A stretch of 64,000 bases of DNA from Rhodococcus coprophilus NBRC 100603 (GTDB lineage: Bacteria; Actinomycetota; Actinomycetes; Mycobacteriales; Mycobacteriaceae): positions 124,001-188,000 of the forward strand of contig NZ_BDAM01000008.1 of assembly GCF_001895045.1 (NCBI RefSeq), in the 5' to 3' direction. Positions 26,261 to 38,370 of this stretch are shown here, one piece after another. Under the pieces are notes generated by a model, which saw only the letters and a program-made list of their open reading frames with translations, made no database searches and had not been told where the DNA came from. Position numbers and translations under genes: made by a program. Each line of letters begins with the position of its first letter. The first letter of the stretch is position 1.

Positions 26261-26983
26261 GTGGCGCCACGTCGCAGATCGGTGCTTCTCGACCGGCTCC
26301 GTGTGGACGCACCCGGACGACCACAGGACGCCATCCTCGACGAACTCCGGCGCGTCTTCCTCTCCGGCGCAGCGCCGCCCGGCACGCCGATACCGCTGGG
26401 CGATGTGGCGGAACTCTTCGGTGTCAGCCGCATCCCCGTACGCGAAGCGCTCAAGACCCTGATCGGGGAGGGACTGGTCACCCATCGGCAGAATCACGGA
26501 TACATCGTCGCCCAGTTGACGGCCGCAGAACTGCGCGAGCTGTACCTCGTCCGCGAGACACTCGAATCCGCGTCCCTCGCGGCAGCACTCCACAACGCCA
26601 CCCCCGAGGACGACCGGCTCGCCGAGCTTTCACACGAGATTCTCGAACGTGCTGTACGGGAACATGACTCGCACACCTATCACCGGGAGAGTCGCATCTT
26701 CCACATGACGCTCGCGCGTCCGTCCCGGATGCACCGGCTACTGCACATGCTCGAATACGCCTGGAACATCACCGAGCCGGTCCAGCCGATGGTCCACGTG
26801 AGCGACGCAGAACGCGCCGAACTGCACCACGAACACAAGGCAATGCTCGACGCCTTCCTCGCACGTGACACCGAAAAGCTGCTTGCAGCGTACGAACACC
26901 ACAATCGGCGGCTCGACGCGGCGATCTCGACGCTTGCCGCGGACGCAGGCCTGCTGAGCCCGGAAGATATACAGTTCGGGTAA
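26261..26983 (+). CDS. GntR-family (FCD/FadR-type) regulator
   Basis: A 240-residue regulator with an N-terminal winged helix (PLGDVAELFGVSRIPVREALKTLIGEGLV, about residues 45-75) and an all-helical FCD ligand domain that usually binds a metal and an organic acid. The histidines of the FCD pocket appear in RESRIFHMTL and ELHHEHKAM. Start GTG 26261 has a GAGGGGAG ribosome site. It lies 64 bases upstream of the NCS1 transporter on the same strand and probably controls the transporter-racemase operon. Confidence 0.92.
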   Translation: MAPRRRSVLLDRLRVDAPGRPQDAILDELRRVFLSGAAPPGTPIPLGDVAELFGVSRIPVREALKTLIGEGLVTHRQNHGYIVAQLTAAELRELYLVRETLESASLAAALHNATPEDDRLAELSHEILERAVREHDSHTYHRESRIFHMTLARPSRMHRLLHMLEYAWNITEPVQPMVHVSDAERAELHHEHKAMLDAFLARDTEKLLAAYEHHNRRLDAAISTLAADAGLLSPEDIQFG

Positions 26984-27047
26984 TCCTGCGGCAATGTCGC
27001 GCGGTTAGCGTCGGTTCATCGAAATCGCTCACCGCACAGGAGAACCC

Positions 27048-28559
27048 ATGACCGAAGTGCTGACACCGCGCGACGATGCACCCGTACCGGGCCCGTCCGC
27101 GGCCTACGATCCGCGGCTCACCAACGACGATCTGGCCCCTTTGAAGAACCAGCGATGGGGCTCGTACAACATCTTCGCGTTCTGGATGTCCGACGTGCAC
27201 AGCGTCGGTGGTTACGTCACGGCCGGCAGCCTGTTCGCACTCGGTTTGGCGAGCTGGCAGGTGCTGGTCGCACTGCTGGTGGGCATCACCATCGTCTACT
27301 TCTTCTGCAACCTCGTCGCCAAACCCAGCCAGGTCACCGGGGTACCCTATCCGGTCATCTGCCGCAGCGTCTTCGGGGTGCTGGGTGCGAACATTCCCGC
27401 CATCATCCGGGGCGTCATCGCCGTGGCCTGGTACGGAATCCAGACGTTCCTCGCGTCGGCCGCACTGGACGTGGTGCTGATCAAACTCTTCCCCTCGCTC
27501 GCGCCGTACGCGGTCGTCGCGGACTACGGGTTCGCCGGGCTGTCCGCACTCGGCTGGGCCAGCTTCCTGACGCTGTGGGTACTCCAGGCATGCGTGTTCT
27601 GGCGGGGCATGGAATCGATCCGGCGGTTCATCGACTTCTGCGGTCCCGCAGTCTATGTCGTGATGTTCCTGCTCTGCGGCTACCTGATATCCCAGGCCGG
27701 GTGGAGTGCGATCGACCTGACGCTCGGCGCCGTCACCCACACGGGCTGGTCCTCGGTGCCCGTCATGCTCGGTGCGATCGCGCTGGTGGTCTCGTACTTC
27801 TCCGGACCGATGCTCAACTTCGGTGACTTCTCCCGGTACGGAAAGTCCTTCGGTGCAGTGAAGAAGGGGAACCTCCTCGGACTTCCGGTCAATTTTCTGG
27901 TTTTCTCGCTGCTCGTGGTGATCACCGCCTCGCTGACCCTTCCGGTCTACGGCGAACTGATCACCGACCCGGTCGAGACCGTCGCCCGCATCGATTCGAC
28001 CTTCGCGATCGTCCTCGGCGCGCTCACCTTCGCGATCGCCACCATCGGTATCAACATCGTCGCGAACTTCATCGCGCCGGCGTTCGACTTCTCCAACGTC
28101 AGCCCCCAGCGGATCAGCTGGCGGGCAGGCGGCATGATCGCCGCGGTCGGATCGATTCTCATCACCCCGTGGAACCTGTACAACAACCCGGAAGTCATCC
28201 ACTACACACTCGAGACCCTCGGCGCGTTCATCGGCCCGCTGTTCGGCATCCTCATCGCCGACTACTACCTGGTGCGCAAGCAGAAGGTGATCGTCGACGA
28301 CCTTTTCACGATGTCCGAGAAAGGTGCCTACTGGTACCGCAAGGGATACAACCCCGCCGCCGTGGTCGCCACGGTCGTCGGTGCCGCCGTCGCGATGACC
28401 CCGGTGCTGTTCAACAGTGCTCCCGGCATGAGCACCGCGGCGCAGTACAGCTGGTTCATCGGGTGCGGACTCGGTTTCGCCGTCTACTACCTGCTGGCCA
28501 CCCGTACCCGGTTTGCGGTGCACGTCCCCGAGCCCGCCCCCACGCAGGAAGCCGTCTGA
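27048..28559 (+). CDS. NCS1-family nucleobase/hydantoin:cation symporter
   Basis: A 503-residue membrane protein with about 12 transmembrane segments and the NCS1 layout. Typical stretches are NQRWGSYNIFAFWMSDVHSVGGY, YPVICRSVFGVLGAN, the AWYGIQTF helix and GPMLNFGDFSRY. The family includes Mhp1 (hydantoins), uracil, cytosine and allantoin permeases. The adjacent hydantoin-racemase-like gene, five bases downstream, favours a hydantoin or allantoin-like substrate. ATG 27048 has AGGAG upstream. Confidence 0.92.
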   Translation: MTEVLTPRDDAPVPGPSAAYDPRLTNDDLAPLKNQRWGSYNIFAFWMSDVHSVGGYVTAGSLFALGLASWQVLVALLVGITIVYFFCNLVAKPSQVTGVPYPVICRSVFGVLGANIPAIIRGVIAVAWYGIQTFLASAALDVVLIKLFPSLAPYAVVADYGFAGLSALGWASFLTLWVLQACVFWRGMESIRRFIDFCGPAVYVVMFLLCGYLISQAGWSAIDLTLGAVTHTGWSSVPVMLGAIALVVSYFSGPMLNFGDFSRYGKSFGAVKKGNLLGLPVNFLVFSLLVVITASLTLPVYGELITDPVETVARIDSTFAIVLGALTFAIATIGINIVANFIAPAFDFSNVSPQRISWRAGGMIAAVGSILITPWNLYNNPEVIHYTLETLGAFIGPLFGILIADYYLVRKQKVIVDDLFTMSEKGAYWYRKGYNPAAVVATVVGAAVAMTPVLFNSAPGMSTAAQYSWFIGCGLGFAVYYLLATRTRFAVHVPEPAPTQEAV

Positions 28560-28563
28560 TCGA

Positions 28564-29301
28564 ATGTTCCTCCAGGTCGTCAACCCGAACACCACGTGGG
28601 CGATGACCGCCAAGATCGAGGCGTGTGCCCGGGCCGTCGCCGGTCCGGGCACACGCGTCGAGGCGGTCAGCCCGGCGATGGGACCACCGTCCATCGAAAG
28701 TCACTACGACGAGGCTCTTGCCGTCCCCGGGCTTCTCGCCGAGATCGAGAAGGGTGAACGCGCCGGCGCCGACGGGCACGTCATCGCATGTTTCGGCGAC
28801 CCGGGCCTCGACGCGGCCCGCGAGATAGCGACCGGACCGGTCGTGGGGATCGCCGAAGCCGCGATGCACACCGCGACGCTGCTGGGCAGAAGTTTCTCCG
28901 TGGTCACGACGCTCGGGCGCACGACCGGCCGGGCCTGGGATCTGGCAGAGCGCTACGGAATGCGCGGGAAGTGCCGGGGGGTACACGCGTGCGAGGTGCC
29001 CGTGCTGTCGCTCGACACCGATCCGGACGCGCGCAAGATCATCACGGAGGCATGTGCCGACGCGCTGTCCGAAGACGGATCCGACGTCGTCGTGCTCGGG
29101 TGTGCCGGAATGGCCGACCTGTGTACCCGGATCTCCGCCGATCTCGGTGTTCCCGTCGTCGACGGTGTCACCGCGGCGACGCTCGCGGTGCAGTCGCTCG
29201 TCACGATGGGACTGGCGACCGGAGGCAAGCGCGGCGAGTTCGCACCACCGCCCCCGAAACTCTATTCCGGTCTGCTGCAGGATTTCACAACAAGCCGGTG
29301 A
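28564..29301 (+). CDS. Hydantoin racemase-like (Asp/Glu racemase superfamily)
   Basis: A 245-residue Asp/Glu/hydantoin racemase fold. It begins LQVVNPNTTWAMT, as hydantoin racemases do. The two catalytic cysteines are visible, in HVIACFGDPGLDAARE (about residue 78) and VVVLGCAGMADL (about residue 180). It would racemise 5-substituted hydantoins or a related compound such as allantoin in the cytosol. ATG 28564 follows the transporter stop closely, so the two form an operon. The 3' end overlaps the convergent IclR gene by 17 bases. No hydantoinase or carbamoylase is seen nearby. Confidence 0.88.
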   Translation: MFLQVVNPNTTWAMTAKIEACARAVAGPGTRVEAVSPAMGPPSIESHYDEALAVPGLLAEIEKGERAGADGHVIACFGDPGLDAAREIATGPVVGIAEAAMHTATLLGRSFSVVTTLGRTTGRAWDLAERYGMRGKCRGVHACEVPVLSLDTDPDARKIITEACADALSEDGSDVVVLGCAGMADLCTRISADLGVPVVDGVTAATLAVQSLVTMGLATGGKRGEFAPPPPKLYSGLLQDFTTSR

Positions 29302-30037
29302 GACGCCGTGATCCGTCGTGGAGGAAGGCCAGCTGCTCGTACTCTGCGGGCGACACGCGCAGAGGCGAACCCTGCAGGCAGAGCCCCCCGACCACTTCTG
29401 CCCCGTGGTTGCGAATCGGGACGGCCAGAGCCGACCGGCCCATCCTGCACTCCTGGTTCTCGAATGCGTGGCCGACGAGCCGGATCCTCGACAGCTCGGC
29501 TTCGAGCGTCTCGGAGTCGCACACGGTGTTGTCGGTCAGCTTGCGCAGTTCGAGCCCCACACTCATTTCGGTGTTGTGCGCGAGCATGATCTTTCCCAGC
29601 GCGTTGGAGTGGAGGTTCTTGGCAAGCAGGGCGATTCCGACGATCTCGTGATCGGGATCCTGGTCGACGAAACGCAATCGGCCACCCGCGAACGACGCCA
29701 CGTGCAATCCGAAACGGGTGTGCGACCGGAGATCCTCGACCGTCTCGTGGAGGGTGGGCGAGGTATCCGTCTCCACCGCGGCCCGGGACAACTCGACGGT
29801 GCGTCGCCCGAGGGCGAAGCCGGACAGGTCGGGTACGCGCACCAGAAAGCCCTCCGCGACGAGCAGATTGAGCATCCGATACGCGGTCGTCGGTGCCACC
29901 CCGGCGAAGTGGGCGATCTCCTTCGCGGTGGCGCCGGGGCCGAGATGCGCCACTGCCTCGAGCATCCCCAGTGCCTTCCGTACGGCCTTGGGCTGCTGGC
30001 CGCCGAATCCCACTTCGGCGTCCGCCTGGGTGGTCAT
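29285..30037 (-). CDS. IclR-family transcriptional regulator
   Basis: A 250-residue IclR regulator. The N-terminal winged helix is KALGMLEAVAHLGPGATAKEIAHFAGVAPTTAYRMLNLL (written here from residue 21 in two parts: KALGMLEAVAHLGPGA and TAKEIAHFAGVAPTTAYRML). The C-terminal GAF-like ligand domain contains HSNALGKIMLA and CRMGRSALAVPIRN. The start at ATG 30037 overlaps the APC permease stop by ATGA-type coupling, so it is the second gene of that operon. It may regulate the permease or the adjacent hydantoin module. Confidence 0.92.
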   Translation of the reverse strand: MTTQADAEVGFGGQQPKAVRKALGMLEAVAHLGPGATAKEIAHFAGVAPTTAYRMLNLLVAEGFLVRVPDLSGFALGRRTVELSRAAVETDTSPTLHETVEDLRSHTRFGLHVASFAGGRLRFVDQDPDHEIVGIALLAKNLHSNALGKIMLAHNTEMSVGLELRKLTDNTVCDSETLEAELSRIRLVGHAFENQECRMGRSALAVPIRNHGAEVVGGLCLQGSPLRVSPAEYEQLAFLHDGSRRLTGLL

Positions 30038-31581
30038 CGCGGGTCTCCCGGCAGCGGACAGGCCGATGCGAGTTGGGGCCGTCCGGCGTCGTCGAGCACC
30101 AGTTCGCCCGCGCCGGGCAACAGGTCGGCGGTTTCCGGGCTGTCGAAAGCACCCATCGTCGCGAGTGACGCCGGCCGGACCCGCTTCAGCACGGTCGCCC
30201 ACACCACGCCGGCCAGCGCGACGACGAGCACGGCGGACGGTATCCCCCACTGCCCGTCGACGATCCCGGAGAACGTGAGATACCCGAGCAGTCCGGCTCC
30301 CACGCAGGCGATGCCCACCGCGATCACGGTGGTCGAGCGCGCATCCTCGCCGATACGCCGCAGGAACCGCAGACACGACACGGCGAGCAACGTGTAGGCA
30401 CCGACCACGGCGACCTCGACGAAACCGTCGAACACGACCGAGTCGCCGAGGAAGATCAGCAGGTACAGCCACGCGCCGATCACCACCGCGGCGGTGAAGG
30501 CGATCACCGCGACGTACGGTGTGCGGAATCGTGGATGGACACGGGACAGGCGCCGCGGAACGGTGCCCTCGATGCCCATCGCCAGCAACAGCCGCGAACC
30601 GGCCTGCGCACATCCCAGGGCGGATGCGAACCAGGAGAAGGTCACACCGACTTTGACCGCCACCACCATCGCAGTGCTCGCTCCCGAGGAAGTGCCCTCG
30701 AAATACGCGGCCACGACCACGTCCGCGTGCCCGGTCAGTGCGGCCCATCCGGCGAAGACGAAAACTGCTCCGCACAGGATCGGGGTGACGAGTACTGCCC
30801 GGGTCACTGTGATCAGGGGGCGCCTGGCCTCGGCCCCGAAGAACGCCGCGCTCTCGAATCCCGCCATCCCGAACACCACGATCAGCGCCAGGAACGGCAA
30901 CGTTGCGGCGGCGCCGGGTGTGACCGAGGAGGTGGGAGTACCGGAGTCGGTGACCATCAGTGCGCAGATGACCACCAGCGAACACAGTTCCACGACGAGG
31001 ATTGCCCGCGTCGCGAGACGGACACCGCGCACCGCAATGGTCGCGACGACACCTGCGACGAGCACTGCGCACACCAGCAGCGGTACAGTCCCGGACACGG
31101 CACTGCCGAGAGCGGTGGCGATTCCCAGCAGGCTCACCGCCGAGTTGGCCAGAACCGAAATCGCGATACCGAGATAACCGAGCAGCAGGGCCGCGCCCAT
31201 GGTGAGGGTGGCACGCCGGGGAAGTCCCTGGAACGCGAAGCTGTACAACGACCCCGCGGCAGCGAGCCGACGGGTGAACTGGGAGATGCAGAAGGCGACC
31301 GCGACGACCACCGCGGTGGTGCCGACGATCGCGCCCAGCCCCGCGACACCGGGATCGGCCGAGATGATCCACGACGCGATGAAGATCATTCCCGTCGCGG
31401 GGGCCACCGTCGACAACGATTGGCCGATCAGGTCCATCTGCGAAAGTTGACGTCGGTTCAGCGCCCGCAGGGGAGAAAACACCGGTGCGGCGGCCGGAGC
31501 GGCATTTCGGGAACGCGCGATCGCCGCTCCTAACGCACCACCGGTCCGCGACCCGCCACTGCCACGTCTGCCGCTCGTCAC
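30034..31581 (-). CDS. APC-superfamily amino acid/amine permease
   Basis: A 515-residue transporter with about 12 transmembrane helices. The first conserved segment is QMDLIGQSLSTVAPATGMIF (helix 1 of the APC fold), followed by FGMAGFESAAFFGAEAR and VHPRFRTPYVAVIAF, all typical of amino acid-polyamine permeases. GTG 31581 is the most likely start; a longer frame continues but overlaps the upstream promoter region. The C-terminal tail is soluble. It forms an operon with iclR and diverges from the amine dehydrogenase-like cluster, so an amine substrate is possible but unproven. Confidence 0.88.
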   Translation of the reverse strand: MTSGRRGSGGSRTGGALGAAIARSRNAAPAAAPVFSPLRALNRRQLSQMDLIGQSLSTVAPATGMIFIASWIISADPGVAGLGAIVGTTAVVVAVAFCISQFTRRLAAAGSLYSFAFQGLPRRATLTMGAALLLGYLGIAISVLANSAVSLLGIATALGSAVSGTVPLLVCAVLVAGVVATIAVRGVRLATRAILVVELCSLVVICALMVTDSGTPTSSVTPGAAATLPFLALIVVFGMAGFESAAFFGAEARRPLITVTRAVLVTPILCGAVFVFAGWAALTGHADVVVAAYFEGTSSGASTAMVVAVKVGVTFSWFASALGCAQAGSRLLLAMGIEGTVPRRLSRVHPRFRTPYVAVIAFTAAVVIGAWLYLLIFLGDSVVFDGFVEVAVVGAYTLLAVSCLRFLRRIGEDARSTTVIAVGIACVGAGLLGYLTFSGIVDGQWGIPSAVLVVALAGVVWATVLKRVRPASLATMGAFDSPETADLLPGAGELVLDDAGRPQLASACPLPGDPR

Positions 31582-31944: not shown

Positions 31945-32532
31945 ATGTTCTGGGCGATGGTCGCATCGATACTCGGTGGAACGCTCCTGCTCGCGGGCAT
32001 TCCGAAGCTCCGCGATCGGGACGGGCTTCTGACCGTGGTGAAGGGATACCGGCTGCTGCCGGACCGGATGGAACGTGTGGTGGCGGGTTCGCTGCCGCTC
32101 GTCGAGGTTCTGGTGGGAACCGCATTGATCCTCGGGATCGCCGGTGTGTGGGCGGCCTCGGGCGCCGCACTGCTGTTCGCCGCCTTCACGTTCGGGCTGA
32201 CCGTGAACCTGGCTCGTGGCCGGCGTGACCTCGACTGCGGATGCTTCGCGTTCTCCGCCCACGAAGTGCCACGCATCGGGTGGTTCCACGCGGCCCGCGC
32301 GGCATCGTTCGCCGTCACCGCACTCGTCCTCGCGGCGACCCACCCGTCGGGGATCGCTCCGCTCGAACAGCTCATCGGTGCGTCGGCCGGCTTGCTGATC
32401 GTGCTCGCCGTGGTCGCGGTCGTGCAGATCCGATCGGTCGTGCACTTCGGCCGCCGTCCCGTCGACGACTACCTGACCTCCGCCTCGATCAGATTGCGCG
32501 CAGTGAGCACCGAGTCGAAGTACGGCTCGTAA
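31945..32532 (+). CDS. MauE-like membrane protein
   Basis: A 195-residue protein with about four transmembrane helices, of the MauE/DoxX-like type. It begins FWAMVASILGGTLLLAGIPKLRD, and the Cys pair motif RRDLDCGCFAF falls in a loop after helix 3, as in MauE. In proteobacteria MauE and MauD are needed to form the many disulfides of the methylamine dehydrogenase light chain. First gene of an eight-gene cluster, followed 43 bases later by the MauD-like gene. Assigned by fold, the Cys pair and context. Confidence 0.78.
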   Translation: MFWAMVASILGGTLLLAGIPKLRDRDGLLTVVKGYRLLPDRMERVVAGSLPLVEVLVGTALILGIAGVWAASGAALLFAAFTFGLTVNLARGRRDLDCGCFAFSAHEVPRIGWFHAARAASFAVTALVLAATHPSGIAPLEQLIGASAGLLIVLAVVAVVQIRSVVHFGRRPVDDYLTSASIRLRAVSTESKYGS

Positions 32533-32575
32533 TCCCCTCTCCGCCGACCCTTTTGCACAGATAGGACTGATTTCG

Positions 32576-33175
32576 ATGACAACATTTCTCCTGGTGGCCG
32601 TCGTGGTGCTCACCGTGGCGGTCGCACTGCTGTTCCTCATGACCCTGGCGCTGGCCCGTGAGATCGGTCGTGTTCAGGTGCGCCTCGGGCCGCTGGGCGC
32701 GCGGATGATGGACACCGGCCCGAAGGTCGATCAGGCCGGCCCCTCGTTCGCCGGACTGGTCGATCACGTCGGGCGGTCGGTGCGCGTCGGAGGTCACCGC
32801 GACAAGGCGCAGCTGCTCATGTTCACCGCTCCCAGCTGCAGCACCTGCAAGAGCCTGCTTCCCGGTCTGCGTGCAATGGCCCGCGCGGAAACGGATCTCG
32901 ACGTCGTCATCGTGTCCGACGGCACCCCCGAGGAACACCGGGAGTTCCTGGCCGGCAGCAACATCGGCGACGAACTGAGCTACGTCGACGCTCGCGACGT
33001 CGGAATCGCCTACCAGGTGGGCACCACACCGTACGGGGTGATCCTCGACGAGCACGGCAAGATCCGCGGTAAGGGCCTGTGCAACCACATGGCCCAGGTC
33101 GAGAGTCTGCTCAACGCTCTCGAGTCCGGCACTCCGTCCCTCCAGCACCTGCATGCGCAGGCGAAGTCTGCCTGA
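32576..33175 (+). CDS. MauD-like membrane-anchored thioredoxin-fold protein
   Basis: A 199-residue protein with an N-terminal membrane helix (residues 3-26) and an extracytoplasmic thioredoxin-like domain. The redox motif is C88-S-T-C91 in FTAPSCSTCKSLLPGL, and the cis-proline-like GTTPYGVILDE lies near residue 143. This matches MauD, a disulfide-handling partner in methylamine dehydrogenase assembly. It lies between the MauE-like and light-chain genes, the same order E-D-A as in proteobacterial mau operons. Confidence 0.85.
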   Translation: MTTFLLVAVVVLTVAVALLFLMTLALAREIGRVQVRLGPLGARMMDTGPKVDQAGPSFAGLVDHVGRSVRVGGHRDKAQLLMFTAPSCSTCKSLLPGLRAMARAETDLDVVIVSDGTPEEHREFLAGSNIGDELSYVDARDVGIAYQVGTTPYGVILDEHGKIRGKGLCNHMAQVESLLNALESGTPSLQHLHAQAKSA

Positions 33176-33205
33176 CCCGTCCCGAGAGAGAGAAGGAGCC
33201 AAGCC

Positions 33206-33895
33206 ATGGAAGAACACAACATGACCGAGAACCGATATCCGGTCGATGAGGAAACCGTCCGCGCACAAGCGGACTGGATGGCAGGCAAGGGCGGATCATT
33301 CGTCAGCCGCACGGGACGCAAACTGTCCGAGAGCACCTCTCGCCGTTCGATGCTCAGCAAGATCGGCCGATGGACGATGGGCGTGTCCGGTGTCGCGCTG
33401 ATCAGCTCGCTGCCGGTCACCCGCAGCGCAATGGCACAGGACCTGCCGCCGGAGCCTGCGACGCCCGAGGTACCGGATCCGCAGTTCATCACGTTCGACG
33501 GCAAGGATCCGGCCGAGTGTGAGTACTGGCGCTGGTGCAACATGGACGGCACCTCGTGTGCGGCCTGCAATGGCGGCGGCGTGACGACATGTGCTCCCGG
33601 CAGCCGTCCGGGCGCCGAGTTCTGGGTGGGTTGCTGCACCAACCCGGATACCGGAAAGACCTACCTGATCGCCTATTACGACTGCTGTGGCGCACCGTCG
33701 TGCTCCAACGCTTTCTGCGGCGAACCCGACATGCAGGCCATCATGTACAACCCCGTCTCCGGCAGCTACGACCAGGAGATCATCTGGTGCGTCTCGGACG
33801 AGTCCCAGGCGTACACGTGCACGATGGCGCCCATCATCGGCGAGGACTGCCAGACCCGCCCCGCAGCTCGTCCGAAGGTCGGTGCCGGAGCATGA
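33206..33895 (+). CDS. TTQ-type amine dehydrogenase light chain (MauA/AauA-like)
   Basis: A 229-residue precursor. A Tat signal (S45-R46-R47-S-M-L50, then a hydrophobic stretch to about 77) precedes a Cys-rich domain that aligns with the MauA small subunit. Counterparts of the two cofactor tryptophans are W140 (FWVGCC, beta-Trp57) and W194 (IIWCV, beta-Trp108). Catalytic and biogenesis residues match at D114 (beta-Asp32), D159 (beta-Asp76, YYDCCG) and T206 (beta-Thr122). Fourteen cysteines are present, the twelve of MauA plus C143 and C215. Tryptophan tryptophylquinone would be made from W140 and W194. AAGGAG precedes ATG 33206. The amine substrate is unknown. Confidence 0.88.
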   Translation: MEEHNMTENRYPVDEETVRAQADWMAGKGGSFVSRTGRKLSESTSRRSMLSKIGRWTMGVSGVALISSLPVTRSAMAQDLPPEPATPEVPDPQFITFDGKDPAECEYWRWCNMDGTSCAACNGGGVTTCAPGSRPGAEFWVGCCTNPDTGKTYLIAYYDCCGAPSCSNAFCGEPDMQAIMYNPVSGSYDQEIIWCVSDESQAYTCTMAPIIGEDCQTRPAARPKVGAGA

Positions 33896-35205
33896 CATCT
33901 CGATCCAGCAAGCGCTTTCCCCGTACCGCCGCGATCGCCGTTCCGCTCGCCGCCGCGATCGTTCTCACCGGATGCAGTTCGGACGACGAGAGTCCGGCCG
34001 CCGGCGAGGTCACCTATCCGACCGTGCCTTTCACGACACCCGGTGAGGGCATCGGTCTCGGTAGCGAGGACCAGGAAATCGGTTCGACCTTCCCGGAACC
34101 GGTACACGTCGCCGAGATCGAGCCGATCAAGTCGACGGAATTGCTCGCCGTAGCAGGCGGTTTCGGCAATCTCGAGCTCGGTGTCAACACCCTCGACCCT
34201 GTGACCGGCGTGGCAGGAAACCGCTTCGTCGTGGGCCCGGGCATTTGGGATCCGGTGATCCACGGCTTCGTCGGCGAGACTTCCGCCGACCCTGCCGTTC
34301 TCGCGGCCGAGGTGTGGCGTCCCCGCGGGTCACGCGGTGCCGCGGACTTCACCGTCAGCACCTACTCGGGCAACCTGCTCGAGCCCTCGGAGGTCGTCCT
34401 CCCCGACTACGCGCGTGTCCACTCGCGGCCGGGATCCAATGCGGTGACCTCGGACGGCAAGTACTTCGTGACCTGGGACGACGGCCTGTACGGCGTGCGG
34501 GTCGTCGACCTCGAGGCGAAGAAGGAGAGCGGGGCACTCCAGATCATCGGCTGCGGGCCGTTCACCTGGCTGGTCGGGCACGAGCTCTACAGCGTCTGCG
34601 AGGACACCCGGGAGTTGATCCAGATCTCGATCGACGATGCGGGTGTTCCCACCGAGACCGCGCGGGCCAAGGTCCTCCCCGACGATTTCGTCAGCAATCG
34701 CACAGTCACCTGGGCCGACGAGAGTGACCAGGCGCTGCTGGTGGGTGCGAACGGCGACGTGTACGTCCTCGATTTCTCGAACGGCCTCCCGTCGGAAGCG
34801 GTGACACCGATCGGAAATGCCGGCCAGGACTCCGGCCGGTTCGCGGGCAACGCCATCAACAACACCGGCACCCGGATCGCGATCGAGTACACCGACTCGG
34901 TGGTCCACCCCCACTCCGCTCGCGGTGGCGACGTGGTGAAGATCGACCTGTTCGACGCGGCCACGTTCGCACCCGTGAAGACCCTCGATCTGGCGGCGCT
35001 CGGGCTCACCGGCATCTCCAGCATGGCCTTCTCGGTCGACGGTGAGACGCTGTACGTCGTCGGCGACGGGCCCGAGGTGGAAGGCGAATCGGCACAGACG
35101 ATCGTCGGAATCTCCGCCGAGACCGGCGACAAGGTCAGTTCGGTGGAAATCACCGGGACCGTCGACGACGTGAGCAATCTCTTGACCCCACAGGTGCTGG
35201 AATGA
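33892..35205 (+). CDS. Beta-propeller lipoprotein, putative amine dehydrogenase heavy chain
   Basis: A 437-residue lipoprotein with lipobox L-T-G-C28. The rest is a repeat-rich beta protein with propeller-like blades (SNAVTSDGKYFVTWDDGLYGVRV, ADESDQALLVGANGDVYVLD, AFSVDGETLYVVGDG). It overlaps the light-chain stop by ATGA, so translation is coupled one to one. Size, fold and position fit the heavy chain of methylamine/aralkylamine dehydrogenase, a seven-bladed propeller. Being a lipoprotein it would hold the enzyme on the outer face of the membrane. Sequence identity to MauB is not obvious by eye, so the role is inferred. Confidence 0.7.
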   Translation: MTSRSSKRFPRTAAIAVPLAAAIVLTGCSSDDESPAAGEVTYPTVPFTTPGEGIGLGSEDQEIGSTFPEPVHVAEIEPIKSTELLAVAGGFGNLELGVNTLDPVTGVAGNRFVVGPGIWDPVIHGFVGETSADPAVLAAEVWRPRGSRGAADFTVSTYSGNLLEPSEVVLPDYARVHSRPGSNAVTSDGKYFVTWDDGLYGVRVVDLEAKKESGALQIIGCGPFTWLVGHELYSVCEDTRELIQISIDDAGVPTETARAKVLPDDFVSNRTVTWADESDQALLVGANGDVYVLDFSNGLPSEAVTPIGNAGQDSGRFAGNAINNTGTRIAIEYTDSVVHPHSARGGDVVKIDLFDAATFAPVKTLDLAALGLTGISSMAFSVDGETLYVVGDGPEVEGESAQTIVGISAETGDKVSSVEITGTVDDVSNLLTPQVLE

Positions 35206-36788
35206 TTCGTTCGGGCCCGACCCTCGACCGCCGCGGTTTCCTCCGCGTCGGCTCCCTCGGAGCCGGCGCGGTGGGACTCGGAGTACTGGGTCTCGGTGCA
35301 GCATCCTGCAGTTCGGGCTCGGCGGCGGACCCCGCTACCCCGCTGGACTACATCACCGCTACCGATCCCGAGATCGCGGCTGCGGAGCAGGCGCGCGGGT
35401 GGAACGGACGCGAAGTCACTGCCGCTCTGACGGCAGCGGTGGCCACCGTCGACCTCGGCGGACGACTCGTCGACACGTGGTCGTACGGCGGTCGTGCGGT
35501 GGCTCCCGAACTGCGGGCGAGCGTGCGCGACAAGATGCTGGTGTCCGTACGCAACGAACTCCCGACGGATACCACGGTTCACTGGCACGGCATCCGGATC
35601 CGCAACGACATGGACGGAGCAGCACCGGCAACTCAGGATCCGATCGGACAGGGCGGCGACTTCCTCTACGACTTCGTCGTTCCCGACCCGGGCACCCACT
35701 GGTATCACTCACACAGTGGGCTGCAGGCCGACCGCGGCCTTTTCGGGGCACTCGTGGTGGAGGATCCGAACGACACCTCCGGCGCCGACGTCGACGTCAC
35801 GCTGGTCCTCGACGACTGGGTCGACGGCCTCGGGACGACACCCGAGGCAGTCCTGGCGGCCCTCAATCCCGCGATTTCGGGAGGCCACGGCGGGCACGGC
35901 GGGCACGGCGGCGGCGCACCGGCCGAACCCACTCCGGAGGAATCGTCGGTCGCGCAGGCACTGGTGAACGGGGGGCACGGGTCGTCCGTTCCTCTCGGGG
36001 GCATGACCCAGCACATCGGGTACCCGCTGCACCTGATCAACGGGCGGCCGCCAAACGACCCCGAGGTCGTCACGGCGGCACCTGGTAGCCGCGTGCGGCT
36101 GCGGATCGTCAACGCTGCCGCGGAGACGCCGTACCGGTTCGCGGTCGCGGGCCACGAACTCACTGTCATCGCAGCCGACGGGTTCGACGTCACCCCGGCG
36201 ACCACCGACACGCTGATCATCGGGATGGCGCAACGCTACGACGTTCTCGTCACGCTGAAGTCGGGCGCATGGCCGGTGGTCGCGAAGGTCGAAGGGCGAG
36301 ACGGATACGCGTCGACGGTGCTGCGCTCGACCGACGCCGCACCCCTGTCCGCCCCCGACGTCGGAGGCGTCCTGCCGGAACTCGGAGGGCGATTGCTCGC
36401 CGAGAGCGAATTGCGTCCGGCGGAGTCCGTCCGCTTGGAGACCCGTTCCCCGGACCGGGATTACCGAGTGGAACTGATCCAGGCCGGCGACCGCTACGTG
36501 TGGGGCATGGCCGGGGCCGACGCCGGGAAACTCGTGATGCGCCAGGGTGAACGGATCCGCATCACGATGGCGAACACCAGCACGATGTGGCATCCGATGC
36601 ACACACACGGGCACACGTTCGCAGTACCGGACTACGGCGGACTCCGGCGCGACACCGTGAACGTGCTACCCGGCACCGAACTCGCGATCGAGTTCGACGC
36701 CGACAACCCTGGTGAGTGGATGTTCCACTGCCACAATGCCTATCACTTCGAGGCAGGGATGACCGCGAACCTGCGGTACATCCGATGA
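35202..36788 (+). CDS. Tat-exported lipoprotein multicopper oxidase
   Basis: A 528-residue three-domain multicopper oxidase. A Tat motif (D9-R10-R11-G-F-L) is followed by a lipobox-like A-S-C36. All copper motifs are present: H128-W-H130-G, H167-W-Y-H170-S-H172, H464-P-M-H467-T-H469 and H509-C510-H511-x3-H515-x4-M520, so both the trinuclear centre and type 1 copper are intact. A His/Gly-rich loop (three HGG units) lies between domains. The ATG overlaps the propeller gene by four bases. It may take electrons from the amine dehydrogenase via cupredoxins, or take part in TTQ formation; both are inferences. Confidence 0.9.
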   Translation: MIRSGPTLDRRGFLRVGSLGAGAVGLGVLGLGAASCSSGSAADPATPLDYITATDPEIAAAEQARGWNGREVTAALTAAVATVDLGGRLVDTWSYGGRAVAPELRASVRDKMLVSVRNELPTDTTVHWHGIRIRNDMDGAAPATQDPIGQGGDFLYDFVVPDPGTHWYHSHSGLQADRGLFGALVVEDPNDTSGADVDVTLVLDDWVDGLGTTPEAVLAALNPAISGGHGGHGGHGGGAPAEPTPEESSVAQALVNGGHGSSVPLGGMTQHIGYPLHLINGRPPNDPEVVTAAPGSRVRLRIVNAAAETPYRFAVAGHELTVIAADGFDVTPATTDTLIIGMAQRYDVLVTLKSGAWPVVAKVEGRDGYASTVLRSTDAAPLSAPDVGGVLPELGGRLLAESELRPAESVRLETRSPDRDYRVELIQAGDRYVWGMAGADAGKLVMRQGERIRITMANTSTMWHPMHTHGHTFAVPDYGGLRRDTVNVLPGTELAIEFDADNPGEWMFHCHNAYHFEAGMTANLRYIR

Positions 36789-36798
36789 GAGGACAGCT

Positions 36799-37140
36799 GT
36801 GAAGAAACTGACAATGCTTGCCGTGGCGCTCGCCACCTCCGCCGCCCTGACCGCGTGCGGTTCGGAGGACACGTCCGACGAACCCGCCGTGGTCATCGAC
36901 GTGGCGAACATGGCCTATTCGCCCGCTTCCGTCACGATCGAGGCGGGACAGACCGTGCAGTGGCGTTTCGACGACAACGGTCTCCCCCACGACGTCGCGG
37001 GTGACGGTCCGCTCGAAGGCCTGCTGCAGAGCGAGTTGCTCACCGAGGGCACCTACGAGTACACCTTCGACGACCCCGGCACGTACACCTACCACTGCAC
37101 GCCCCACGCGTCGATGGTCGGCACCGTCATCGTCGAGTAG
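36799..37140 (+). CDS. Amicyanin-like cupredoxin lipoprotein 1
   Basis: A 113-residue blue-copper lipoprotein with lipobox L-T-A-C20. Type 1 copper ligands are H64 (LPHDV), C100, H103 and M106 in YHCTPHASM, the same C-x2-H-x2-M loop as amicyanin, the electron acceptor of methylamine dehydrogenase. GTG 36799 follows the oxidase stop by 10 bases. It is expected to carry electrons from the TTQ enzyme to the oxidase or respiratory chain at the outer membrane face. Confidence 0.88.
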   Translation: MKKLTMLAVALATSAALTACGSEDTSDEPAVVIDVANMAYSPASVTIEAGQTVQWRFDDNGLPHDVAGDGPLEGLLQSELLTEGTYEYTFDDPGTYTYHCTPHASMVGTVIVE

Positions 37141-37154
37141 TGGAGCATTCGGTA

Positions 37155-37487
37155 ATGCTGCGCCGCAGCCGAATCGGCAGCTGGGCGATCACAGGCGGGA
37201 TCGCCGCGGCGACGCTGACCGGATGTGCCGGCGCGGACGTTCCCGATGCCGTGATCGAGATCAGCAACGTCCAGTTCAGTCCGATGGACGCCACCGTCGA
37301 GGTCGGCGACACCGTCGAATGGCGGTTCGACGACGGTGGTCTCCTGCACCACGTGGAATCACCCGGTGAGTTCGACAGCGGGATCACCGGCGAAGGCACC
37401 TTTTCGTACACGTTCGACCGTCCCGGCACCTACACCTATACCTGCTCGATCCACCCGTACATGACCGGAACGGTCACCGTCCGCTGA
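37155..37487 (+). CDS. Amicyanin-like cupredoxin lipoprotein 2
   Basis: A 110-residue paralogue of the previous gene with lipobox L-T-G-C24. Copper ligands are H65, C97, H100 and M103 (YTCSIHPYM). The start at ATG 37155 is preferred because GGAG lies nine bases upstream; an in-frame GTG at 37140 overlaps the previous stop. Two tandem cupredoxins suggest a relay or different partners (TTQ enzyme and multicopper oxidase). Confidence 0.85.
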   Translation: MLRRSRIGSWAITGGIAAATLTGCAGADVPDAVIEISNVQFSPMDATVEVGDTVEWRFDDGGLLHHVESPGEFDSGITGEGTFSYTFDRPGTYTYTCSIHPYMTGTVTVR

Positions 37488-37533
37488 GAAACGAGCGGGA
37501 CTTCTTACACAGCAACGACTCTGGAGGTTACCG

Positions 37534-38370
37534 ATGACCACCGTCCTCACCCACGAACCGATCGCAACCGACTTACCCGACATCCGCCCGACGCTCTCGG
37601 GCGCCGTATCCACCACGGCACGACTCGGGCTGGCTGCCGGTGCTGCAGTAGCCGGCGCGGGCGTCGCGACGCTCGCCGCACCGACGACGGCGACGGCTCT
37701 GACCGCGGCCGTGGTCGGCGCCGGGCTCGTCACCTCACTCGCCGCGAACTGGTCCACCTGCGGAATGTCCGTGGCCGGCGTCGTCGCGGCCCCGAAGCAG
37801 CCCGGCCGCAAGGGAGCATCGACCCCGCTCCGACGACTGGGCTGGCACGCGCTCGGATCGGTGAGCACCGGTGCTGTCACCGGCGCCGTCCTCGGTGCAC
37901 TCGGTTCGGTCACCGCCGCGAGCCTGTCGCCGTTGTGGCTGCTGTTCGGATGGGCCGTATTCGCCCTCGCCTACGGCCTCCACGAGATCGGCGTCTTGTC
38001 GATGCCCGCTCCCATGCGACGGCAGCAGTTGCCCCGGCACCTGCGGCGGACGATGGCGCCGTGGAAGGTGTCGTTGCTGTTCGGCGCGATCATCGGTCCC
38101 GGATTCCTCATCTTCATCCGGTCCAGCGCGTATTACCTGCTGGTGCTCGGCGTGCTCGCCGTCGGATCTCCCGCGCTCGGCGCCGCGATGTTCACAGTCG
38201 TTTCTCTCGGCCGGTGCATGCCGAGTGTCGCTGCGATCGCCCACACCCGCCGCGGTGGCTCGATGCCGGGCTTCCTGTCGGTGATGTGCGTCGTCGACCG
38301 CCGTGTGCAGGCCGTCACCGGTGCAGCCCTCGTCGGGCTTGCCGCATTCGCGGTCTTCTCGCTGATCTGA
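37534..38370 (+). CDS. Polytopic membrane protein, MauF/CcdA-like candidate
   Basis: A 278-residue protein with about six or seven transmembrane helices. Cysteines occur in NWSTCGMSVAG near the end of helix 2 and in SLGRCMPSVAA in a later helix, spaced like the reactive pair of DsbD/CcdA-type electron carriers. MauF, another membrane protein of mau operons, belongs to that broad fold, so a role in supplying or removing electrons for disulfide formation of the light chain is plausible. ATG 37534 has GGAGG upstream. It closes the cluster, before a strong terminator. The family assignment is tentative. Confidence 0.6.
   Translation: MTTVLTHEPIATDLPDIRPTLSGAVSTTARLGLAAGAAVAGAGVATLAAPTTATALTAAVVGAGLVTSLAANWSTCGMSVAGVVAAPKQPGRKGASTPLRRLGWHALGSVSTGAVTGAVLGALGSVTAASLSPLWLLFGWAVFALAYGLHEIGVLSMPAPMRRQQLPRHLRRTMAPWKVSLLFGAIIGPGFLIFIRSSAYYLLVLGVLAVGSPALGAAMFTVVSLGRCMPSVAAIAHTRRGGSMPGFLSVMCVVDRRVQAVTGAALVGLAAFAVFSLI

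What the first reader, a model, noticed from the sequence alone, without database searches (positions are those of the whole stretch)
31945..38370. Actinobacterial TTQ amine dehydrogenase-like cluster without MauG
Eight co-directional genes (mauE-like, mauD-like, light chain, propeller lipoprotein, multicopper oxidase, two amicyanin-like lipoproteins, polytopic membrane protein), several overlapping by four bases, reproduce the logic of proteobacterial mau/aau operons in a Gram-positive mycolic-acid host. To my knowledge the characterised TTQ enzymes come from Gram-negative bacteria. The di-haem MauG that completes TTQ is absent from the cluster, and no CxxCH-rich haem protein was seen nearby. 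A Tat-exported multicopper oxidase occupies the operon instead. Proposal: a membrane-anchored amine-oxidising chain in which the oxidase either completes TTQ or is the terminal electron acceptor.
Basis: partly seen in the sequence, partly recalled or inferred. Interest (0 to 1): 0.92.

Follow-up and report, generated by a model that had tools for sequence, protein, structure and literature searches.

The report
MauG-free amine dehydrogenase operon in Rhodococcus
Rhodococcus and a few other Gram-positive soil bacteria carry a complete-looking operon for an amine-oxidising enzyme whose self-made quinone cofactor was thought to need a special haem protein (MauG) that these genomes lack, and one relative appears to put selenocysteine into a helper protein of the same operon.

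Summary
A permease and an IclR regulator lie divergently upstream in 30 of 32 relatives with long flanks. Both TTQ tryptophans, both active-site aspartates and 12 cysteines are kept in 26 of 26 actinobacterial sequences. A MauG-family search found nothing in 49 rows (41 distinct assemblies) carrying the operon; all 15 plasmid records with MauF do have MauG. Planctomonas deserti keeps the operon without MCO or MauG, so the MCO is more likely an electron outlet than the TTQ-maker. Best reading: a third lineage of TTQ dehydrogenase, matured without MauG. TTQ itself is unproven. Unexpected: in one Kineococcus the invariant MauF cysteine is an in-frame TGA, in a genome with tRNA-Sec, SelA, SelB and SelD; seven further genomes of its family carry a MauF-like gene with TGA in the same motif. 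This marks the MauF cysteine as a likely redox residue and MauF-like proteins as candidate selenoproteins. New variant of a known kind.

The parts
31945..32532 (+). mauE homologue, 195 aa membrane protein with the CGC motif (C98, C100)
   Evidence: PF07291 85.8 bits, cut-off 27; C98 and C100 in 97% of 39 rows, one row being a fragment
32576..33175 (+). mauD homologue, membrane-anchored thioredoxin-like protein with CSTC
   Evidence: TIGR02661 173.2 bits, cut-off 188.6; C88 and C91 in all 40 rows
33206..33895 (+). light chain, 229 aa, Tat-type leader; W140 and W194 = TTQ tryptophans; D114 and D159 = active-site aspartates; 14 Cys in the mature part
   Evidence: PF02975 109.3 bits; PDB 3c75_L E 7e-30; residues
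33892..35205 (+). heavy-chain-like propeller lipoprotein, 437 aa, lipobox Cys
   Evidence: profile-profile with three MauB/AauB sequences 95.8%, E 8e-9, shared Cys pair; PF06433 in 1 of 17 members, E 0.0038
35202..36788 (+). three-domain multicopper oxidase, RR leader and lipobox-like Cys36, type 1/2/3 copper ligands (ligand roles recalled)
   Evidence: PF07732, PF00394, PF07731; ligand columns kept in 97% of 35 rows, one row being a fragment; PDB laccases, best E 1.6e-40
36799..37140 (+). cupredoxin lipoprotein 1, amicyanin/halocyanin-like; H64, C100, H103, M106
   Evidence: PF00127 52.5 bits; TIGR02657 56.5 bits, cut-off 110.2; ligands in all 36 rows
37140..37487 (+). cupredoxin lipoprotein 2
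   Evidence: PF00127 31.8 bits; TIGR02657 37.2 bits, cut-off 110.2
37534..38370 (+). MauF homologue, 278 aa polytopic, WSTCGMS motif with Cys76, invariant in the 14 sequences aligned
   Evidence: BLASTP E 2e-16; hhalign 99.3%, control 0.1%; alignment A5
30034..31437 (-). APC-family permease, divergent from the operon
   Evidence: PF13520 53.5 bits; upstream in 30 of 32 loci with long upstream flank: 29 by tblastn, L045 by ORF and Pfam; in L022 about 2 kb further away
29285..30037 (-). IclR-family regulator, next to the permease
   Evidence: PF01614 and PF09339; same 30 of 32 loci

Best explanation
The operon encodes a secreted, membrane-tethered amine dehydrogenase of the TTQ type, a third lineage beside methylamine dehydrogenase (mau) and aromatic amine dehydrogenase (aau). 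Steps: (1) the light chain is exported by Tat (RR leader seen in the sequence; export inferred); (2) MauF, MauE and MauD pass thiol electrons outward and sort its 6-7 disulfides (inferred; the MauF cysteine is marked as redox-active by the Sec/Cys exchange in a relative); (3) W140 and W194 are oxygenated and cross-linked to TTQ without any MauG-family diheme protein (residues and absence of the family shown; the chemistry inferred; what finishes it unknown); (4) the light chain docks on the lipid-anchored propeller heavy chain and deaminates a primary amine to aldehyde and ammonia; (5) electrons go one at a time to the lipid-anchored cupredoxins and from there to the multicopper oxidase and O2 where that gene exists, otherwise to the respiratory chain (inferred). 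The divergent permease and IclR regulator point to a dedicated amine or amino-acid-like substrate; which one is unknown.
For: Light chain family and PDB matches. W140, W194, D114, D159 and 12 of the cysteines in 26 of 26 actinobacterial rows; W140, W194 and D159 in 10 of 10 outgroup rows, D114 in 9 of 10. Gene context in the 36 relatives, contig ends apart. MauF by profile and in 7 of 7 genomes searched, the own one and six of other genera. Heavy chain by profile. Planctomonas without MCO: intact frames, light chain dN 0.14 and dS 0.67 against Microbacterium. MCO-cupredoxin pair elsewhere in R. erythropolis.
Against: No biochemical evidence of TTQ or amine oxidation. The NCBIfam cut-offs for MADH light chain (119.8 of 196.85), MauD (173.2 of 188.6) and amicyanin are not reached. 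Heavy-chain membership rests on one profile comparison and one weak Pfam hit; general propeller families hit more members (SGL 2, best E 1.2e-6; Lactonase 3) and PDB gives none. An unlinked maturase of another family was not searched for. Planctomonas is one genome and its MCO was probably lost (the ATGA at which MCO starts in the window is still there), so its operon might be decaying although its frames are intact. Some of the 41 assemblies are incomplete (G305 75%; two Dietzia MAGs).
Confidence: 0.6

Rival explanations
1. The multicopper oxidase is the MauG substitute: it oxidises the mono-hydroxylated precursor and completes TTQ with O2.
For: It is found in the locus of 34 of 36 relatives (L046 only as a fragment; L049 ends before it), MauG is absent, and its copper sites are complete.
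Against: Planctomonas deserti keeps light chain, heavy chain, a cupredoxin and MauE/D/F, but its best MCO match genome-wide is 25.9 bits over 245 residues. R. erythropolis has a second MCO, 62% identical, directly followed by its own cupredoxin in another setting, so the pair looks like a portable oxidase module.
Confidence: 0.15
2. An unlinked enzyme of another family (flavoprotein monooxygenase as in CTQ enzymes, or a non-MauG haem protein) completes TTQ.
For: Flavoproteins QhpG, LodB and GoxB do such steps for CTQ (PMC7876137, passages). In four aau-type clusters the neighbouring proteins tested include no PF03150 protein either.
Against: No candidate is linked to the operon in the relatives read. 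Not searched genome-wide. For aau the comparison is weak: four Burkholderia replicons with an aau-type light chain carry a 33-35% identical diheme peroxidase more than 1 Mb away.
Confidence: 0.3
3. The light chain carries no TTQ: it is a disulfide-rich electron-transfer or binding protein that kept the fold.
For: MauG is missing, and MauE/D/F-like genes in Kineococcus-family genomes lie beside a Cys-rich secreted protein not known to be a quinoprotein.
Against: Both tryptophans and both active-site aspartates are invariant in 26 of 26 rows and amicyanin-like partners are present.
Confidence: 0.15

Closest known systems
Methylamine dehydrogenase (mau) cluster of Paracoccus denitrificans (L052)
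   Same: MauF, heavy chain, MauE, MauD, light chain and a cupredoxin; TTQ residues
   Different: No MauG, and no MauJ or ferredoxin-type genes in the window operon; order E-D-A-B-MCO-cup-cup-F; lipid anchors; MCO; two extra Cys (143, 215); light chain 33% identical
Aromatic (aralkyl)amine dehydrogenase (aau) type clusters (L053, L054, L073, L074, L075)
   Same: Heavy chain, MauE, MauD, light chain; no PF03150 protein among the neighbours tested in L054, L073, L074, L075
   Different: No MauF match in the 16 light-chain plasmid records outside the mau type (31 minus 15); c-type cytochromes annotated, matched or read nearby; the actinobacterial operon has MauF, cupredoxins and MCO
Quinohaemoprotein amine dehydrogenase (qhp, CTQ)
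   Same: Protein-derived tryptophylquinone in a secreted amine dehydrogenase
   Different: Different protein and maturation enzymes, among them the flavoprotein QhpG (PMC7876137, passages; the rest recalled)
DsbD/CcdA-type membrane thiol conduits
   Same: Two of three Kineococcus-family MauF-like proteins tested exceed the DsbD_2 cut-off of 24.9 (33.7 and 25.5 bits; the third 22.0)
   Different: MauF proper reaches 15.8 bits in Kineococcus and has no DsbD hit in 14 actinobacterial and 3 proteobacterial sequences

Membership tests
TTQ amine dehydrogenase (homologous / works like) | Light-chain family PF02975 | tested here: met
   109.3 bits, cut-off 25
TTQ amine dehydrogenase (homologous / works like) | Two tryptophans that form TTQ | tested here: met
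   W140 and W194, 26 of 26 rows; they align with the corresponding Trp of 3c75_L (their role is recalled)
TTQ amine dehydrogenase (homologous / works like) | Two active-site aspartates and the disulfide cysteines | tested here: met
   D114, D159 in 26 of 26 and in all 41 rows; 12 Cys in 26 of 26, each also in 6-10 of 10 outgroup rows; roles recalled
TTQ amine dehydrogenase (homologous / works like) | Propeller heavy chain PF06433 | tested here: inconclusive
   hhalign 95.8%, E 8e-9; PF06433 in 1 of 17 members, E 0.0038, beside other propeller families; none in PDB
TTQ amine dehydrogenase (homologous / works like) | TTQ present in the mature protein | not testable with these tools
   needs mass spectrometry or quinone stain
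mau (methylamine dehydrogenase) system proper | MauG diheme enzyme | tested here: not met
   0 of 49 rows at E 0.01; own genome 15.8 bits, cut-off 25.6
mau (methylamine dehydrogenase) system proper | NCBIfam equivalog cut-offs TIGR02659, TIGR02661, TIGR02657 | tested here: not met
   119.8 of 196.85; 173.2 of 188.6; 56.5 and 37.2 of 110.2
mau (methylamine dehydrogenase) system proper | MauF, MauE, MauD accessory proteins | tested here: met
   (MauD by homology, below its equivalog cut-off)
aau (aromatic amine dehydrogenase) system | Cluster without MauF and with c-type cytochromes instead of cupredoxins | tested here: not met
   MauF and cupredoxins present; MauF found only in 15 of the 31 light-chain plasmid records
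Selenoprotein (MauF of Kineococcus, L047) | In-frame TGA at a conserved Cys in a genome that decodes Sec | tested here: met
   WSP-TGA-GYS; tRNA-Sec 72.4 bits, SelA, SelB and SelD over their cut-offs
Selenoprotein (MauF of Kineococcus, L047) | SECIS hairpin with apical loop 16-37 nt after UGA | tested here: inconclusive
   hairpin with apical loop 20 nt after UGA in L047; 33 nt in six of seven MauF-like genes (imperfect in L102; not in the minimum-energy fold of L101); no compensatory changes in the four aligned

The most novel reading that the evidence does not exclude
Actinobacteria make TTQ by a route with no MauG-family enzyme, and MauF is the thiol (in Kineococcus selenol) gate of a DsbD-like MauF-MauD-MauE relay that matures this and other cysteine-rich secreted proteins. 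A second such module, with a TGA-containing MauF-like protein, lies beside a Cys-rich secreted protein in seven further genomes of the Kineococcus family, and that protein might carry a tryptophan-derived cofactor of its own.
Probability: 0.45. Interest if true: 0.85.

Novelty: new variant of a known kind. Interest (0 to 1): 0.74.

Why it matters
How TTQ is finished is described for one enzyme, MauG. A group of tractable aerobic bacteria that keep every TTQ residue and no MauG-family gene makes it directly testable whether MauG chemistry is required or whether another route exists. The operon also brings a TTQ-type dehydrogenase into Gram-positive bacteria with its own copper-based electron outlet. 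The selenocysteine/cysteine exchange gives MauF, as far as I recall without an assigned function, a specific residue and a testable chemical role.

Tried and rejected
MauG candidate in the own genome: the only PF03150 hit at E 1 (15.8 bits, L002) lies in what I read as a shadow frame and was rejected. MCO as obligatory TTQ-maker: given up as the leading idea after Planctomonas. Light-chain kinship of the Kineococcus-family Cys-rich protein: the whole-profile comparison gives 94.9% (reversed control 0.9%, 60 column shuffles at most 27.5 against 56.9), but the signal is mostly in the leader (leader only 89.8%); the mature part alone gives 11.1%, score 24.0 against at most 20.8 in 60 shuffles. 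Homology is suggestive only; Pfam and PDB searches with that stretch gave nothing. MauF against DsbD families: no DsbD hit in 14 actinobacterial and 3 proteobacterial MauF; only Kineococcus-family forms match. The light-chain tree does not settle whether mau or aau is nearer: the actinobacterial clade sits on a long branch, the root is a midpoint and long branches meet. PDB search with the permease: nothing. Promoter scan 0 found (0.7 expected), terminator scan 1 found (2.9 expected). Light chain outside the genus: 2 of 298 genomes of the order, both of the window's genus; 2 of 396 of the phylum, one the own genome and one below the cut-off; 1 of 398 of the Planctomonas family, Planctomonas itself.

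The reduced synonymous variation after UGA (6 of 16 invariant-residue codons vary in the first 18 positions, 53 of 75 beyond; p 0.019) was a post hoc split. The selection test downstream of TGA covers the seven MauF-like genes, not L047 itself. Only three of the 15 mau-type plasmid records were opened; MauG in the other 12 is.
Full report
WHAT IS THERE. The window holds eight + strand genes at 31945-38370. Pfam and NCBIfam name MauE, MauD, a TTQ-type light chain, a multicopper oxidase and two plastocyanin/amicyanin-like proteins; the fourth and eighth genes had no meaningful family hit. The eighth is MauF: BLASTP E 2e-16 to P. denitrificans MauF, 277 against 278 residues; profile-profile 99.3%, E 1.6e-20, with a MauE control at 0.1%. 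The fourth is heavy-chain-like: profile-profile with three MauB/AauB sequences 95.8%, E 8e-9, with a shared cysteine pair; PF06433 hits 1 of 17 relatives at E 0.0038, while general propeller families hit others, SGL at best E 1.2e-6; no PDB match. So the operon is mauE-mauD-mauA-mauB-like-MCO-cup-cup-mauF.

THE LIGHT CHAIN. It matches solved methylamine and aromatic amine dehydrogenase light chains (best E 7e-30). In the tree alignment both TTQ tryptophans (W140, W194), both aspartates (D114, D159) and 12 cysteines are kept in 26 of 26 actinobacterial rows (25 of the 36 loci plus the window); among 10 outgroup rows W140, W194 and D159 are in 10, D114 in 9, and the cysteines in 6 to 10. Cys143 and Cys215 occur in 26 of 26 and 0 of 10, which suggests a seventh disulfide. 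One assembly (L046) has a tail in another frame. An RR leader pattern is in 36 of 36 light chains; a lipobox pattern in 35 of 36 heavy chains, 33 of 34 first cupredoxins, 30 of 34 second-cupredoxin matches and 31 of 34 MCOs.

RELATIVES. A scan of one genome per species gave 36 loci from 44 candidate stretches: Rhodococcus, Prescottella, Nocardia, Dietzia, Actinacidiphila, Microbacterium, Kineococcus and Planctomonas. Light and heavy chain are in 36 of 36; mauE and mauD in 35 (L050 starts at mauA); MCO in 34 (L046 a fragment; L049 ends before it, though that genome has it on another contig; L048 lacks it); MauF in 33, the other three loci being cut by contig ends, and both Dietzia genomes have MauF elsewhere. 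L044, L048 and L050 show one cupredoxin (L050 ends there). In L047 MauF lies between light and heavy chain. In the window's genus 13 of 18 genomes carry the light chain; in the order 2 of 298, both of that genus. An APC permease and an IclR regulator lie divergently upstream in 30 of 32 loci with long flanks (29 by tblastn, L045 by ORF and Pfam; not in L047 and L048).

NO MauG. The MauG-position proteins of three mau clusters score 153-188 bits. In the plasmid collection 31 records carry a light chain and 15 of these MauF; all 15 have a MauG-family protein: 13 Paracoccus records by tblastn at 74-100% identity and two by Pfam. The 16 others had no MauF match; neighbouring proteins tested in L054, L073, L074 and L075 include no PF03150 protein, but four Burkholderia records among the 16 carry a 33-35% identical diheme peroxidase more than 1 Mb away. 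So clusters without an adjacent MauG are not unique to actinobacteria; among what I searched, MauF without MauG in the whole genome is.

THE OXIDASE. Copper ligands are complete. Planctomonas deserti has 94 bases between heavy-chain stop and cupredoxin start, and its best MCO relative anywhere is 25.9 bits. The ATGA overlap at which MCO starts in the window is still there, so the gene was probably lost. Its light chain is under purifying selection against Microbacterium (dN 0.14, dS 0.67). In R. erythropolis a second MCO (62%) directly followed by a cupredoxin lies between a substrate-binding lipoprotein and an ABC transporter that look iron-siderophore-like (names by my reading). Both facts favour the oxidase as an electron outlet fed by cupredoxins.

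SELENOCYSTEINE. In Kineococcus TRM81007 the MauF frame has one TGA exactly at the invariant cysteine of WSxCG. Of nine cluster-bearing genomes tested, only this one has tRNA-Sec and SelA over the family cut-offs; ARAGORN names a tRNA-Sec with anticodon tca; SelA, SelB and SelD pass NCBIfam cut-offs. A search of the 12 genomes held of its family with this MauF found 8 with a match, each with TGA in the frame: itself and seven divergent MauF-like genes (28-35% identity, E 1e-8 to 1e-3; one match spans a second TGA). In all eight the TGA lies in WSP-TGA-G. Downstream of TGA, 21 of 21 pairs of the seven (not independent) show dN below dS. Hairpins follow at a distance that fits the 16-37 nt stated in PMC10778597 (passage) in seven of eight, without covariation. 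Neighbourhoods: a MauE in L104 (PF07291 59.5 bits); MauD-like proteins in L104, L106 and L108; and in 7 of 7 a Cys-rich protein nearby, in L104 as two pieces in different frames, with RR in the six aligned, a Tat-signal hit and LGFP repeats shown for L106. A sequencing error in L047 alone could not explain eight TGA at one motif.

LITERATURE SEEN. Searches of the held open-access library for TTQ, MauG, amicyanin or methylamine/aralkylamine dehydrogenase with actinobacteria, Gram-positive or Rhodococcus terms listed no TTQ enzyme of a Gram-positive, as far as titles and abstract starts tell. Passages were read in PMC7876137, PMC8262859, PMC6405878, PMC5739008, PMC6801914, PMC1794560, PMC10778597 and PMC2398784; PMC1242214 had none of the terms. 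The two selenoprotein surveys (PMC1794560, PMC2398784) do not hold the words MauF or DsbD in the main text, and the listing (20 of 38 papers shown) showed no paper on a MauF selenoprotein. That MauG acts on a mono-hydroxylated Trp is from PMC7876137; that characterised TTQ enzymes are from Gram-negatives is recalled.

VERDICT. A real, conserved, MauG-free variant of the TTQ amine dehydrogenase operon. Homology to the TTQ system is strong, formation of TTQ likely but unproven, the maturation route open, the MCO probably the outlet. The Sec/Cys exchange in MauF is the most unexpected result.

Noticed in passing
L047:10657-11478 (Kineococcus sp. TRM81007): MauF homologue with one in-frame TGA at the invariant Cys of the WSxCG motif, in a genome with tRNA-Sec, SelA, SelB and SelD: candidate selenoprotein.
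   Followed up: yes
   Followed up: partly
L072 (Thermomicrobium roseum plasmid): A stretch with a light-chain-annotated gene, several hypothetical genes, a long MauE-domain protein and a sigma factor; one light-chain-like protein was aligned and keeps both TTQ tryptophans.
   Followed up: no
L076:5415-7455 (R. erythropolis): A second MCO-cupredoxin pair between a substrate-binding lipoprotein and an ABC transporter.
   Followed up: partly
L073 (Paracoccus sp. SMMA_5_TC plasmid): aau-type cluster flanked by a SCO family protein, several cytochromes c and a tyrosinase family protein.
   Followed up: no
window 26261-29301: Permease-like and racemase-like genes beside a regulator, perhaps a hydantoin or allantoin cluster (from reading the ORFs only).
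   Followed up: no
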